This document shows, piece after piece, positions 48,206-57,155 of a DNA stretch of 58,862 bases (its first letter is position 1; every line of letters begins with the position of its first letter). Below the pieces are notes generated by a model that was given only the letters and a program-made list of their open reading frames with translations, did not search any database and was not told the DNA's origin. The position numbers and the translations under genes were made by a program. The DNA is from Ideonella oryzae (GTDB lineage: Bacteria; Pseudomonadota; Gammaproteobacteria; Burkholderiales; Burkholderiaceae_C): the NCBI RefSeq assembly GCF_024055665.1, contig NZ_JAMXMC010000018.1:1-58862 (forward strand). Direction: 5' to 3'.

Positions 48206-48997
48206 ATGTCATCCCGTCCCCCTTCTTCGCCCCGCAAGACGAGCCCGCCCGCGGCGCGCGCCACCAGCGTCCGCCGTCCGGCCCCCGCCCCGTCCAGGGA
48301 GGCGGGCCCACCCTCGCCCCTGTTCCGCCCCGCCATGCCCCCCAGCGCTGAGCCGGTGGCCCCACCCCGGCGCACCGTGCGCCAACCGCGCCAGCGCCAC
48401 CATGCCGGCCGGGCTCAGATCCTGGCGACCATCCGCGCCTCGGCGATCGACGTCTTCAGCCGCCATGGCTTTGCCGGCACCACCATGCAGGCGGTGGCCG
48501 AGGGCGCCGGGCTGACCAAGCAGCAGCTGCTCTATTACGCGGGCAGCAAGGACGAGCTCTACGCCAACCTGCTGCACGAGGTGGTCAACGAGTGGCGCGA
48601 GGCCTTCTCGCTCACCGAGGAAGCGGGCCACACCCCGGCCCAGCTGCTGCGCGACTACGTGCACCGCAAGCTGCACTACGCCCTGGCCAACGGCCCGGTG
48701 TCGCGCATCTTCACCGCCGAGATGCTGGCCGGCGGCACCCACATCGCCCGCTACTGGCCCGAGATGCTGGCCTCCACCCAGAACAAGGCGCGCCTGCTGC
48801 AGCGCTGGATGGACGCCGGCCTGCTGCGCCGGCGCGACCCGCTGCTGCTGCTGCAGCAGATCTGGGGCATGACCCAGTACTACGCCGACTACCAGGCCCA
48901 GGTGGCTGTGATGATGGGCGCGCAGCCGCCGGTGGACGCCATCGCCGACGAGATCGCCACCACCGTGCTGCTGGCCTGCGGGCTCTCGCCCGACTGA
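48206..48997 (+). CDS. TetR family regulator, RutR-like
   Basis: A TetR-type repressor (263 aa from 48206). A long basic, proline-rich N-terminal extension (about 70 residues) precedes the HTH: RAQILATIRASAIDVFSRHGF and TTMQAVAEGAGLTKQQLLYYAGSKDELY (in segments). The C-terminal domain resembles the RutR/YcdC ligand domain (EMLAGGTHI, YWPEMLAS, DYQAQVAVMMG). RutR senses uracil and thymine, so a pyrimidine-like effector is a reasonable guess. The start could also be 48335 (MPPSAEP). It heads the catabolic operon that starts 223 bases downstream, where a matching palindrome sits. Confidence 0.85.
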   Translation: MSSRPPSSPRKTSPPAARATSVRRPAPAPSREAGPPSPLFRPAMPPSAEPVAPPRRTVRQPRQRHHAGRAQILATIRASAIDVFSRHGFAGTTMQAVAEGAGLTKQQLLYYAGSKDELYANLLHEVVNEWREAFSLTEEAGHTPAQLLRDYVHRKLHYALANGPVSRIFTAEMLAGGTHIARYWPEMLASTQNKARLLQRWMDAGLLRRRDPLLLLQQIWGMTQYYADYQAQVAVMMGAQPPVDAIADEIATTVLLACGLSPD

Positions 48998-49187
48998 GCT
49001 GGCGCCCGGGCCGGCTTCTGGTGCGGCGCGCCTCAAGCGCGTGCATCGCGCACCCCGGGCGTGAGGCCCACCCGGGGCTCCGTCGGCCCCTCGCCCACCC
49101 CGCCCCACCGGCGCTGAAGACGCTGCGCCGACGCCGCGCCACCCGGCCCTGGCCCCGCCGTGCTGGCTGGCATCGCGCTTGCTTATT

Positions 49188-49202
49188 TTGACCAACAGTC
49201 AA
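49188..49202. promoter_or_regulatory. Likely operator of the catabolic operon
   Basis: TTGAC-CAACA-GTCAA, a perfect 5-base dyad, lies 18 bases before the first gene. It shares the TTGACCA half-site with the RutR consensus TTGACCA-N2-TGGTCAA as I recall it. Its position over the ribosome-site/promoter zone fits repression by the adjacent TetR protein. Confidence 0.6.
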
Positions 49203-49220
49203 ATTTAAGAGCCAGCTGCC

Positions 49221-54436: not shown

Positions 54437-55257
54437 GCCACCCCTCCTCAACCCCGCCCCGCACCCCGCTGCTGCTGCGCCCGCGCGTGCAGCAGGTGGT
54501 CTACCCGCTGCTGGTGCTGCTGGTGCTGCTGGGCGCCTGGCAAGGCACGGTGGACGCGCTGGAGCTGCCGGCCTACCTGGTGCCCTCGCCCATCCTGATG
54601 TTCAAGACCCTGGTGGAAGACGCGGGCATGCTGATGCCGGCGCTGTGGGTCACGTTGAAGATCACGCTGCTGTCCTTCGCGGCGGCCACCGTCATCGGCG
54701 TGCTGATCTCCTTCCTCTTCGTGCAGAGCCGGCTGATCGAGCTGGCCCTGCTGCCCTACGCGGTGCTGCTGCAGGTCACGCCCATCGTGGCGGTGGCTCC
54801 GCTCATCATCATCTGGGTCAAGGACCCGACGCTGTCGCTGGTGGTGTGCGCCACGCTGGTGGCGCTGTTCCCGGTCATCTCCAACACCACGCTGGGCCTG
54901 CGCAGCGTGGACCCGGACCTGCTGGCCTACTTCCGCATGAAGCGCGCCAGCCGCTGGCAGCAGCTCATCCGCCTGCGCGTGCCCGGTGCCCTGCCCTACT
55001 TCTTCGGCGGCCTGCGCATCTCCAGCGGCCTGGCCCTGATCGGTGCGGTGGTGGCCGAGTTCGTGGCCGGCACCGGCGGCAGCGGCGCGGGCCTGGCCTA
55101 CCAGATCCTGCAGGCCGGCTTCCAGCTCAACATCCCCCGCATGTTCGCCGCGCTGCTGCTGATCTCGCTCACCGGTGTGCTGCTCTTCGCCCTGATGGGC
55201 CTGCTGGCCCGCTGGGCCCTGGGCAGCTGGCACAGCAGCGCCCAGGCCCAGGAATGA
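54433..55257 (+). CDS. ABC transporter permease
   Basis: An inner-membrane permease (274 aa) with about six helices and the BPD_transp_1 EAA-like loop (FRMKRASRWQQLIRLRVPGALPYFFGGLRIS region, residues about 156-186). It belongs to the SsuC/TauC/ThiX group and completes the importer. It overlaps the ATPase gene by 4 bases and ends 25 bases before the oxidase gene. Confidence 0.95.
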   Translation: MSHPSSTPPRTPLLLRPRVQQVVYPLLVLLVLLGAWQGTVDALELPAYLVPSPILMFKTLVEDAGMLMPALWVTLKITLLSFAAATVIGVLISFLFVQSRLIELALLPYAVLLQVTPIVAVAPLIIIWVKDPTLSLVVCATLVALFPVISNTTLGLRSVDPDLLAYFRMKRASRWQQLIRLRVPGALPYFFGGLRISSGLALIGAVVAEFVAGTGGSGAGLAYQILQAGFQLNIPRMFAALLLISLTGVLLFALMGLLARWALGSWHSSAQAQE

Positions 55258-55282
55258 AGCGCCCCTCTTCGACATCCTCCCC

Positions 55283-56662
55283 ATGACCACCTCCGCCTAC
55301 CCCATCGACACCCTGCGCGCCGAGCTGCCTGCGCTCGACTGGATCACCGAACCGCACCGCGTGGAGAACCTCTCGCGCGACTTCGCCTGGTACAGCCCGG
55401 TGCTGGAACGCACGCTGGCGGGCAAGCACGGCGACATCGCGGTGCGGCCCCGCAGCGAAGACGAGATCCGCGCCGTGGTGGGTGCCTGCGCCCGCCTGGC
55501 CATTCCCATCACGCTGCGCGGCACCGGCACCGGCAACTACGGCCAGTGCACGCCGCTGCACGGCGGCCTGATCCTGGACATGAGCGCCTACAACGCCTTT
55601 CTGTGGGCGCGGCCCGGCGTGGGGCGGGCGCAGGCCGGCATCCGCCTGGCGGCCTTCGACGACGCCGCGCGGCCGCTGGGCTGGGAGCTGCGCTGGCTGC
55701 CCTCCACCTTCCGCAGCGCCACGCTGGGCGGCCTGTTCGGCGGCGGCTTCGGCGGGGCGGGCTCGCTGCGCTACGGCCCGCTGGCCGCGCCGGGCAACAT
55801 CCTGGCGGTGCGCGCCATGACCGTGGAGCCCGAGCCGCAGATCATCGAACTGCGCGGGCCCGAAGCGCTGGTGATGCACCATGTGTACGGCACCAACGGC
55901 ATCGTGCTGGAGCTGGAGGTGGGCCTGGCCCCGGCCCACGACTGGCTGGAAGGCGTGGCCACCTTCGACGACTTCGACGCCGCGCTGCGCTTTGGCGCCG
56001 ACCTGGGGCGCGCCCCGGGTCTGGTGACCAAGGAAGTCAGCTTCATGGCCGCGCCCATCACCGACTACTTCACCAAGCTGGGCCTGCCCCAGGGGCGCCA
56101 TGCGGTGGTCTTCCTGGCCGCGGAGTTCTGCGAGGAGACCATCGCCCAGATGCTGGCCGAGCGCGGCGGCACGCTGAGCTACCGCGCCACCGCGGCCGAG
56201 GTGGCCGCCAGCCGCCGCACCCTGCTGGAGTACGTGTGGAACCACACCACCCTGCACGCCTTCAAGGTGGAGAAGAACCTCACCTACATCCAGAGCGCCT
56301 ACAACCCCAGCTGCTACCTGGAGCAGGTGCGCACGCTGGCCCAGCGCTTTGCCGGCGAGGTGCAGATGCACGTCGAATTCCTGCGCACCAAGGAAGGCGA
56401 GTACAGCTGCAGCGGGCTGGAGATCATCTGCACCCGCGACGAAACCCGCCTGGCCGAGATCATGCAGGCCTACCGCGACAGCGGCGTCGTCATCAACAAC
56501 CCGCACACCTGCTACGTGGAAGAAGGCAAGCAGAACCTCAAGCTCAACCCGCAGGTGCTGGCCATGAAGCAGCGCTTCGACCCGCAAGGCCTGCTCAACC
56601 CCGGCAAGCTCAAGAGCTGGGCCCCGGCACAACCCCTGGCCCAGGAGCCCGCCCATGCCTGA
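55283..56662 (+). CDS. FAD-binding oxidoreductase (VAO/GlcD type)
   Basis: A 459-residue flavoprotein with a PCMH-type FAD domain. VRPRSEDEIRAVVGACARLAIPITLRGTGTGNYGQ (in pieces) carries the ADP-binding core, and TLGGLFGGGFGGAGSLRYG is the second FAD loop. The C-terminal segment ends RFDPQGLLNPGKL, the usual close of the FAD_binding_4 family. A two-electron oxidation of a C-OH, C-NH or ring position is expected. It may work with the flavodoxin-like reductase. It overlaps the deaminase gene by 8 bases. Confidence 0.9.
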   Translation: MTTSAYPIDTLRAELPALDWITEPHRVENLSRDFAWYSPVLERTLAGKHGDIAVRPRSEDEIRAVVGACARLAIPITLRGTGTGNYGQCTPLHGGLILDMSAYNAFLWARPGVGRAQAGIRLAAFDDAARPLGWELRWLPSTFRSATLGGLFGGGFGGAGSLRYGPLAAPGNILAVRAMTVEPEPQIIELRGPEALVMHHVYGTNGIVLELEVGLAPAHDWLEGVATFDDFDAALRFGADLGRAPGLVTKEVSFMAAPITDYFTKLGLPQGRHAVVFLAAEFCEETIAQMLAERGGTLSYRATAAEVAASRRTLLEYVWNHTTLHAFKVEKNLTYIQSAYNPSCYLEQVRTLAQRFAGEVQMHVEFLRTKEGEYSCSGLEIICTRDETRLAEIMQAYRDSGVVINNPHTCYVEEGKQNLKLNPQVLAMKQRFDPQGLLNPGKLKSWAPAQPLAQEPAHA

Positions 56663-57155
56663 GATCAACGATGCCGACGCCCGCCTGCTGCGCCGGGCCA
56701 TCGAACTGTCCGCTGTCGCCACGTCGAACGGCAACCGCCCCTTCGGTGCGGTGATCGGCAGCGCCAGCGGCGAACTGCTGGCCGAAGCCGCCAACAGCAA
56801 CCGCCAGACCGGCGACTGCACCGCCCACGCCGAGGTCATGGCCCTGCACGAAGCCGCCACCAAAGGCCTGTCGCGCGAGGTGCTGGCCCAGGCCACCATG
56901 TACGCCTCTGGCGAGCCCTGCGTCATGTGCGCGGGGGCCATCTTCTGGTCCGGCATCGGCCGCGTGGTCTTCGGCATCGACGCGGTGCGCATGCGGGCCT
57001 TCCGCAAGTTGGACAGTGGCGCCGGCGACCTGGAATGGTCGTGCGAGGACATCTACGCGCGCTCGCCACGCCCCATCGAAGTGCACGGCCCGGTGCTGCT
57101 GGAAGAAGCCACCGCGCCGCACACGGCGTATTGGGCGCGGTTTCAGGCGGATTGA
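56655..57155 (+). CDS. CDA-fold nucleoside/nucleobase deaminase
   Basis: A zinc deaminase (166 aa) of the cytidine deaminase fold, closest in style to guanine-deaminase GuaD. The zinc site is HAEV (His58, Glu60) and PCVMC (Cys89, Cys92). RPFGAVI and the SGIGRVVFGID stretch are conserved in the family. It differs from the TadA in this window in length and end. It is the last gene of the operon, followed by a strong hairpin. It suggests the substrate or an intermediate bears an exocyclic amino group. Confidence 0.9.
   Translation: MPEINDADARLLRRAIELSAVATSNGNRPFGAVIGSASGELLAEAANSNRQTGDCTAHAEVMALHEAATKGLSREVLAQATMYASGEPCVMCAGAIFWSGIGRVVFGIDAVRMRAFRKLDSGAGDLEWSCEDIYARSPRPIEVHGPVLLEEATAPHTAYWARFQAD

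What the first reader, a model, noticed from the sequence alone, without database searches (positions are those of the whole stretch)
48206..57155. Undescribed-looking operon for uptake and breakdown of a nitrogen heterocycle
A RutR-like TetR regulator, an operator dyad and eight or more coupled genes form one unit: flavodoxin-fold reductase, cytosine-deaminase-like amidohydrolase, RidA, creatininase-family hydrolase, NMT1/ThiY-like importer (three genes), VAO-type FAD oxidase and a GuaD-like deaminase. Most neighbours overlap by 4-8 bases. Two separate deaminase types, an enamine-hydrolysing RidA and a cyclic-amide hydrolase point to stepwise oxidation, deamination and ring opening of an aminated ring such as a pyrimidine, purine derivative or triazine. 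The set does not match the Rut, reductive pyrimidine, hydantoin, creatinine or atrazine pathways as I know them (no RutA, Pyd, hydantoinase, creatinase or AtzD).
Basis: partly seen in the sequence, partly recalled or inferred. Interest (0 to 1): 0.82.

Follow-up and report, generated by a model that had tools for sequence, protein, structure and literature searches.

The report
Nitrogen-scavenging operon for pterin breakdown
The window carries a real, widely shared bacterial operon that most likely imports and breaks open pterins (the ring system of folate vitamins) to obtain nitrogen; single enzymes of this kind are known, but the gene set as a whole was not found described in the papers searched.

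Summary
Much of the set recurs in Burkholderiales, enterics and Pseudomonas. It is probably a pterin (folate-ring) catabolic operon. The FAD enzyme's top structural match is PDB 6V42, titled "flavin oxygenase ... involved in folate catabolism". The "cytosine deaminase" groups with the Variovorax amidohydrolase-RidA pair that fits a described folate/pterin deaminase. Ten of 80 relatives carry instead of it, and eight besides it, a close relative of PDB 2PAJ, isoxanthopterin deaminase by recall. New regulatory facts: a sigma-54-like element and a RutR-type operator lie upstream in 47 and 44 of 71 relatives (window 49168-49202), and the xanthine/urate riboswitch goes with the cluster (23 of 32 family genomes with the oxidase, 25 of 218 without). 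Substrate, reaction order and products are untested; an oxidised-purine role is the main rival.

The parts
48206..48997 (+). RutR-like TetR-family regulator (probable repressor; true start perhaps the ATG at 48335)
   Evidence: TetR_N and TetR_C_3; TIGR03613 RutR 114.9 bits, cut-off 368; best PDB RutR 3loc; in 35 of 62 long relatives
49168..49182 (+). sigma-54 type -24/-12 element TGGCA-N6-TTGC, 54 bases before the first metabolic gene
   Evidence: TGGC[AC]-N6-TTGC within 400 bases of the first gene in 48 of 72 loci (window included), about 1.2 expected; motif prediction only
49188..49202 (+). operator-like dyad TTGAC-N5-GTCAA, RutR-type half-sites
   Evidence: Only site in the window, 0.04 expected; 44 of 71 relatives have a longer form YTGACC-N14-20-GGTCAA upstream; the exact short form was in 0 of 40 relatives
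49221..49808 (+). flavodoxin-fold NAD(P)H reductase, proposed partner of the flavin oxygenase
   Evidence: Flavodoxin_2 and FMN_red; of 80 loci 51 have this gene, 14 a PDR/VanB reductase, none both at 150 bits, 15 neither
49814..51124 (+). amidohydrolase of the pterin-deaminase clade (named 'cytosine deaminase' by models)
   Evidence: PRK07583 308.6 bits, cut-off 403; clade and residues
51121..51591 (+). RidA-like protein (proposed enamine/imine hydrolase)
   Evidence: Ribonuc_L-PSP; same amidohydrolase-RidA pairing at the five Variovorax pterin-deaminase candidates
51588..52457 (+). creatininase-family amide hydrolase (proposed ring-opening step)
   Evidence: Creatininase PF02633 249.7 bits; 58 of 62 long relatives
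52538..53542 (+). NMT1-type periplasmic binding protein of an ABC importer
   Evidence: NMT1 PF09084; paralogues 50-55% identical lie behind xanthine riboswitches in relatives
53606..54436 (+). ABC importer ATPase
   Evidence: ABC_tran
54433..55257 (+). ABC importer permease
   Evidence: BPD_transp_1
55283..56662 (+). FAD enzyme (FAD_binding_4), homologue of PDB 6V42 'flavin oxygenase ... folate catabolism'
   Evidence: phmmer E 4.5e-98; model pLDDT 90.4; Foldseek top hit E 2.4e-48; 40.5% identity
56655..57155 (+). small zinc deaminase of the CDA/GuaD fold (second deaminase)
   Evidence: dCMP_cyt_deam_1; best PDB 8wlv/5xkq; in 9 of 62 long relatives; a homologue follows a xanthine riboswitch in L138

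Best explanation
The operon imports pterins (2-amino-4-oxopteridines shed by folate and other pterin cofactors) and breaks them down for nitrogen. Proposed course: an NMT1-type ABC importer takes up the ring; the amidohydrolase and, for some substrates, the small CDA-type deaminase remove the 2-amino group; the FAD enzyme, fed by the flavodoxin-fold reductase, oxygenates the pteridine; the creatininase-family enzyme opens a cyclic amide; RidA hydrolyses an enamine or imine and frees ammonia. Transcription is predicted to start at a sigma-54 promoter and to be blocked by the RutR-like repressor until its heterocyclic ligand appears. Shown here: gene content, conservation, homology, promoter and operator motifs, riboswitch association in relatives. 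Inferred: substrate, reaction order, products, regulation.
For: (1) FAD enzyme: top structural hit 6V42, title 'flavin oxygenase with cofactor bound involved in folate catabolism'; 40.5% identical to the window enzyme and 65.5% to the Rhizobium copy in L009, which lies in a like cluster. (2) Amidohydrolase: 36-38% identical to the Variovorax amidohydrolase that is followed by RidA (five of five loci), against 25-26% to two CodA; metal-site residues kept; Asn335 in all 20 members aligned against Cys in both CodA. This pair fits the pterin deaminase of Variovorax sp. F1 (399 aa, primer placed in a downstream 'endoribonuclease' gene, deaminates folate and pteroate; PMC9513972, parts 1-3 of 5 read). 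(3) 19 of 86 sources carry a deaminase 49-67% identical to 2PAJ (L073 protein E 3e-202); 2PAJ as isoxanthopterin deaminase is recalled, the enzyme type is described in PMC5270733 (passages). In a 250-genome family sample 9 of 17 genomes with it over cut-off have the oxidase, against 23 of 233 others (p 3.6e-5). (4) Two reductase types that exclude each other suit a two-component flavin oxygenase. (5) Sigma-54-like element and RutR-type operator fit nitrogen scavenging.
Against: No activity has been measured for any window protein. 6V42's title is the depositors' claim; no paper on it was found. The F1 deaminase sequence was not at hand, so its match to the Variovorax pair rests on length (one of five candidates gives 399 aa), neighbour and host genus; the tree had only two CodA and no other amidohydrolase families for contrast, and warned of a long L009 branch. 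18 of 80 loci have the oxidase with neither the amidohydrolase nor the PRK12393 deaminase; several are short contigs, but in the four checked (L028, L031, L037, L044) the reductase stands next to the creatininase-family gene with no room for one. The riboswitch beside many clusters binds xanthine and uric acid and its paper reads its genes as purine oxidation (PMC7373994); it also occurs without the oxidase (25 of 218 genomes). No carboxypeptidase G was seen among the ten genes. A sigma-54-like motif alone does not prove nitrogen control: a loose NtrC-like pattern was found in 6 of 72 loci. The enteric loci show neither motif.
Confidence: 0.6

Rival explanations
1. Oxidised-purine operon: the deaminases act on guanine or 8-oxoguanine-type purines and the flavin enzyme, creatininase-family enzyme and RidA open an oxidised purine by a route parallel to the ureide pathway.
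For: The xanthine/uric-acid riboswitch precedes the cluster's first gene in L069 and L049 and lies near the cluster in 18 of 79 relatives given; co-occurrence 23 of 32 v 25 of 218 genomes, p 1.6e-12; Rieske and 2-oxoglutarate oxygenases of the kind the riboswitch paper links to hpxDE sit nearby in some; a urease accessory gene adjoins in G107.
Against: The window's genome has ureide genes elsewhere; the relatives' PRK12393 deaminase is closest to 2PAJ, not to 8-oxoguanine deaminase (676 v 221 bits); 6V42's title names folate; the riboswitch turns its genes OFF with its ligand (PMC7373994), odd for enzymes that would consume urate.
Confidence: 0.2
2. Thiamine-pyrimidine (HMP) or another 4-aminopyrimidine catabolic operon.
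For: Binding protein resembles ThiY-type and THI5 proteins; regulator resembles RutR; one cyanobacterial oxidase gene lies next to a phosphomethylpyrimidine-kinase-like gene (L090).
Against: No TPP riboswitch or other Rfam match in the window; amidohydrolase is far from the cytosine deaminases compared; only one such neighbour seen.
Confidence: 0.08
3. A route for another aminated ring (s-triazine, creatinine-like or a plant alkaloid) that shares enzyme families with pterin breakdown.
For: The small deaminase is nearest to 8wlv/5xkq, a family I recall as acting on ammeline and guanine-like rings; creatininase family member.
Against: No triazine ring hydrolase among the ten genes; the creatininase-family protein scores higher with MftE than with creatininase, both below cut-off (150 v 109 bits); no independent line points to a triazine.
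Confidence: 0.1

Closest known systems
PDB 6V42/6V43, flavin oxygenase of folate catabolism (depositors' title)
   Same: Homologous FAD enzyme over nearly the full length (40.5% identity to the window); a 65.5% relative lies in a Rhizobium cluster with importer, PRK07583 amidohydrolase, creatininase-family protein and flavodoxin-fold reductase
   Different: The deposit covers one enzyme; the window operon adds RidA, CDA and a TetR regulator
Folic acid degradation of Variovorax sp. F1: carboxypeptidase G and pterin deaminase (PMC9513972)
   Same: Amidohydrolase of what seems the same clade, followed by a RidA gene
   Different: No carboxypeptidase G among the window's ten genes; the parts of the paper read stop at deaminopteroate, and a term search of it found no transporter, gene cluster or creatininase
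Isoxanthopterin deaminase 2PAJ (Hall et al. 2010, recalled; cited in PMC5270733)
   Same: A 49-67% identical deaminase is built into or beside this operon in 19 of 86 sources
   Different: Not present over the family cut-off in the window's genome (396 v 543 bits)
Rut pyrimidine pathway
   Same: RutR-like regulator, RidA (RutC) family member, flavin chemistry
   Different: RutR and RutC models score far below cut-off and no other Rut model matches the ten genes
NMT1-motif (xanthine-I) riboswitch regulon (PMC7373994)
   Same: Gene types of that list (NMT1 binding protein, PRK12393, IPNS-like, Rieske, PDR) surround many of these clusters
   Different: No riboswitch in the window; the window's genome has one elsewhere, before a 2-oxoglutarate oxygenase gene

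Membership tests
Pterin/folate catabolic operon | Enzyme homologous to the folate-catabolic flavin oxygenase | tested here: met
   the reference function is a depositors' title
Pterin/folate catabolic operon | Deaminase of the pterin-deaminase clade, distinct from cytosine deaminase | tested here: inconclusive
   groups with the Variovorax candidates and away from two CodA; that the candidates are the F1 enzyme is circumstantial
Pterin/folate catabolic operon | Activity on or growth with a pterin | not testable with these tools
   needs enzymes or strains
Pterin/folate catabolic operon | Carboxypeptidase G or other folate side-chain cleavage gene in the unit (not essential if free pterins are the substrate) | tested here: inconclusive
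   none among the ten genes; the rest of the genome was not searched for it
Isoxanthopterin deaminase (PRK12393) | Score over the NCBIfam cut-off of 543 | tested here: not met
   window genome's best is 396 bits; met by the L073 protein, 794 bits
Cytosine deaminase CodA | Score over the CodA-type model cut-offs and CodA clade | tested here: not met
   111.9 v 438 and 83.8 v 483 bits; long branch between the clades
Rut pathway | Rut enzymes with RutR/RutC over cut-off in the unit | tested here: not met
   ten genes only, (RutR 114.9 v 368, RutC 34.7 v 169.1)
Creatininase (creatinine amidohydrolase) | TIGR04448 score over 235 | tested here: not met
   109.2 bits
Xanthine-I riboswitch regulon | RF03054 in the window | tested here: not met
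   no Rfam match at the gathering score in the window
Sigma-54 dependent operon | -24/-12 element at conserved distance upstream | tested here: met
   motif only, transcription and sigma-54 dependence not tested

The most novel reading that the evidence does not exclude
This is a bacterial route, not yet assembled in print as far as searched, that opens the pteridine ring of folate-derived pterins for nitrogen, governed by sigma-54 and a RutR-type repressor; and much of the so-called xanthine riboswitch regulon is a pterin-catabolic regulon, so that the riboswitch either also senses an oxidised pteridine (such as lumazine or violapterin, the pteridine counterparts of xanthine and urate) or ties pterin use to purine status.
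Probability: 0.25. Interest if true: 0.78.

Novelty: new variant of a known kind. Interest (0 to 1): 0.58.

Why it matters
Folates and pterins are made by nearly all cells (general knowledge), yet the one soil-bacterial study found follows the ring only to its deamination (PMC9513972, parts 1-3 read). A conserved operon with importer, two deaminase types, a flavin oxygenase with its reductase, and a cyclic-amide hydrolase would offer genes for the missing ring-opening steps. The link to the xanthine/urate riboswitch makes a published regulon testable anew: term searches of the main texts of two riboswitch papers (PMC7373994, PMC8266621) found no pterin, pteridine or lumazine (supplements not readable), although a gene type of that regulon (PRK12393) is closest in the PDB to a protein recalled as isoxanthopterin deaminase.

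Tried and rejected
Cytosine/pyrimidine reading of the amidohydrolase: set aside after the tree and residues. Purely ureide reading: the genome has such genes elsewhere. Riboswitch in the window: none. NtrC-like sites: a loose pattern gave 5 of 72 loci upstream of the first gene, 6 of 72 with the other upstream regions; not pursued. Exact TTGAC-N4-7-GTCAA dyad upstream in relatives: 0 of 40; the longer YTGACC-N14-20-GGTCAA form was found instead. The first gene-neighbourhood tables lost genes overlapped by longer ORFs or were less sensitive and were replaced. A class-wide sample of 274 genomes was too sparse for a co-occurrence test (oxidase 2, riboswitch 3, of which 2 over cut-off), so the family sample of 250 was used. 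Related genomes are not independent: at genus level the co-occurrence is 16 of 23 v 22 of 118, p 3e-6. Of the 32 oxidase genomes, 10 have only a more distant oxidase (best E 1e-122 to 1e-140); 4 of these 10 and 19 of the other 22 have the riboswitch (counted). Literature: ten searches listed no paper that by its title or abstract start treats this cluster as a whole; the library is open-licence only, and some searches listed only a part of their hits (for example, 25 of 301). Rows dropped: alignment A2 used 34 of 36 loci picked from 80, two having a stop in the matched range. One search used 72 of 86 sources, those with a readable first gene. The riboswitch model search was given 79 of the 80 loci (L016 left out). 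The 40 riboswitch sites were found by a regular expression in loci chosen partly for carrying a riboswitch or the cluster; the gene named is the best-scoring of 17 profiles within 700 bases downstream.

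
Full report
Observation. Junctions are -4, -4, -4 and -8 bases at four places and gaps of 223, 5, 80, 63 and 25 bases at five, so 'most overlap' is too strong. The operator dyad at 49188-49202 is the only TTGAC-N5-GTCAA site in the window (0.04 expected).

Conservation. In the 62 loci with at least 18 kb, the neighbours found were binding protein 60, ATPase 59, permease 59, creatininase family 58, amidohydrolase 47, flavodoxin-fold reductase 41, TetR 35, RidA 30, PDR/VanB reductase 14, PRK12393 deaminase 12, LysR 11, CDA 9. 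Plasmid copies in Klebsiella and Pantoea have much the same order with a PDR/VanB reductase and a LysR gene in place of the flavodoxin-fold reductase and TetR, and no CDA. Over all 80 loci, at a threshold of 150 bits, the flavodoxin-fold reductase occurs in 51 and the PDR/VanB reductase in 14, never both; 15 have neither, several on short contigs. L082 has a weak second match (95 bits), and in L050, L075, L076 and L080 the reductase lies behind the oxidase or on the other strand. The pattern suits an oxygenase that needs a separate reductase.

FAD enzyme. Sequence search against the PDB gave 6V42/6V43 at E 4.5e-98. An AlphaFold2 model from 35 rows (mean pLDDT 90.4) has 6V42 as top Foldseek hit (E 2.4e-48), with the entry title 'Crystal structure of the flavin oxygenase with cofactor bound involved in folate catabolism'; next come D-lactate dehydrogenases at 16-17% identity. 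The window enzyme is 40.5% identical to 6V42 and the Rhizobium one in L009 65.5%; L009 carries importer, creatininase family, PRK07583 amidohydrolase (702.6 bits, over the cut-off), FAD enzyme and reductase together. No paper naming 6V42 or 6V43 was found.

Deaminases. The amidohydrolase scores 308.6 against PRK07583 (cut-off 403) and far below the CodA models. In six genomes searched with it (five Variovorax, one Xenophilus) each had a paralogue 29-30% identical; the one aligned (L115) is 78% identical to the window genome's CodA. The five Variovorax genomes also have a paralogue 36-40% identical. All five of these (L110-L114) have a RidA gene directly downstream, and one (L112) has an ATG that gives 399 residues. 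The pterin deaminase of Variovorax sp. F1 has 399 residues, its 3' primer was placed in a conserved downstream endoribonuclease gene, and it deaminates folate and pteroate (PMC9513972, parts 1-3 of 5 read). The tree separates the two CodA proteins from the 20 others by a long branch with 100/100 support, with a long-branch warning for L009; no other amidohydrolase families were included. His81, His83, His234, Glu237, His266 and Asp334 are invariant in the 22 aligned, and the residue after Asp334 is Asn in all 20 and Cys in both CodA. The small deaminase is nearest to 8wlv/5xkq, a family I recall as acting on ammeline and guanine-like rings.

Isoxanthopterin deaminase. In some relatives a PRK12393 deaminase sits between permease and FAD enzyme, or in a neighbouring operon. 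The L073 protein scores 794 bits with PRK12393 (cut-off 543), and its best PDB match is 2PAJ, E 3e-202, 676 bits, against 221 bits for 8-oxoguanine deaminase 7ww2; 19 of 86 sources have one 49-67% identical to 2PAJ. That 2PAJ is the isoxanthopterin deaminase of Hall et al. 2010 is recalled; PMC5270733 (passages) states that this enzyme type deaminates isoxanthopterin and pterin-6-carboxylate. By locus, 44 of 80 have the amidohydrolase only, 10 PRK12393 only, 8 both, 18 neither. In the family sample 17 of 250 genomes have PRK12393 over its cut-off; 9 of them have the FAD enzyme, against 23 of 233 others (p 3.6e-5). The window's genome has none over the cut-off.

Promoter. The first metabolic gene is preceded within 400 bases by TGGC[AC]-N6-TTGC in 48 of 72 loci, the window among them (about 1.2 expected from the density in the same loci), and by YTGACC-N14-20-GGTCAA in 44 of 72, the window not among them; in most loci with both, the second starts about 20 bases after the first. 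The window has TGGCATCGCGCTTGC at 49168-49182 and the shorter dyad five bases further on. Many of the 72 are Variovorax, so they are not independent. I read this as a sigma-54 promoter under a RutR-type repressor; the sigma-54 consensus and the E. coli RutR box are recalled, not looked up. NtrC-like sites were found in 6 of 72 by a loose pattern. The enteric loci with LysR show neither motif.

Riboswitch. Rfam finds the xanthine riboswitch (RF03054) in 2 of 6, 2 of 8 and 4 of 7 loci scanned and not in the window. A model from nine of these sites found 23 sites in 21 of 87 sources; 18 of the 79 genome loci given have one. In L069 one stands before the reductase gene and in L049 one before the amidohydrolase gene of the cluster itself. 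Forty distinct sites, from a biased set, precede a binding protein (18; several are distant relatives at 56-103 bits), an IPNS-like oxygenase (13), a Rieske oxygenase (5), and once each the flavodoxin-fold reductase, amidohydrolase, PRK12393 and CDA. The window's genome has one site, before an IPNS-like oxygenase gene. Of 29 cluster-bearing genomes 22 have a site; 14 of the 29 were chosen with a site already known, and 8 of the other 15 have one. In the even family sample 23 of 32 genomes with the FAD enzyme have the riboswitch, against 25 of 218 without (p 1.6e-12); by genus 16 of 23 v 22 of 118 (p 3e-6). Ten of the 32 have only a more distant oxidase; 4 of those 10 and 19 of the other 22 have the riboswitch (counted). 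The riboswitch paper reports xanthine and urate as ligands, OFF control, and a purine reading (PMC7373994: abstract, passages and one section). Term searches of its main text and that of PMC8266621 found no pterin, pteridine or lumazine; supplements were not readable. The riboswitch without the FAD enzyme in 25 genomes shows that its regulon is wider than this cluster, which keeps the purine rival alive.

Conclusion. Three homology lines with separate published anchors (6V42, the F1 deaminase, 2PAJ) converge on pterins. None is an assay of a window protein, and each rests partly on recall, on a depositor's title or on circumstantial identification. I hold the pterin reading at 0.6, oxidised purines at 0.2, other heterocycles below that. 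The individual enzymes are of known kinds; the assembled set, the exclusive reductase swap, the sigma-54/RutR-type control and the riboswitch link are what appears new, within the limits of an open-licence literature search.

Noticed in passing
window 27369-27665 (-): Weak match (63 bits) to the CDA-type deaminase profile; perhaps tRNA deaminase TadA.
   Followed up: no
L094 (window genome C2:150000-169000): Ureide genes (PuuE allantoinase, OHCU decarboxylase-allantoate amidohydrolase fusion) lie near an ABC permease that scores below cut-off with SaoP, as the window's permease does.
   Followed up: partly
L100 10151-10223 (-), 9004-10161 (-): The window genome's single riboswitch match stands before an IPNS-like 2-oxoglutarate oxygenase gene whose relatives adjoin the cluster in Acidovorax.
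   Followed up: yes
L111, L112, L113, L114: These Variovorax pterin-deaminase candidates with RidA have a RutR-like TetR gene beside them; three of the four also show a weak PDR/VanB reductase match at the locus edge.
   Followed up: partly
L087 11414-17497, L091 12261-15161: In Pseudomonas and a cyanobacterium the FAD enzyme and creatininase-family gene go with isochorismatase, cupin and S15-peptidase genes, and an amidase in L087; possibly later steps.
   Followed up: no
L090 11505-12326: In Desmonostoc the FAD enzyme gene is followed by a phosphomethylpyrimidine-kinase-like gene.
   Followed up: no
L101 5374-6201 (-): A urease accessory gene (UreD) lies by the riboswitch-controlled genes in G107; by eye, UreD-like genes adjoin the cluster in 11 loci and urea-ABC-like genes in some.
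   Followed up: partly
13 Variovorax loci, such as L061 17307-18284: A gene that by eye looks like phenylalanine 4-monooxygenase, a pterin-using enzyme, lies within 10 kb of the cluster; shared synteny, may be chance.
   Followed up: no
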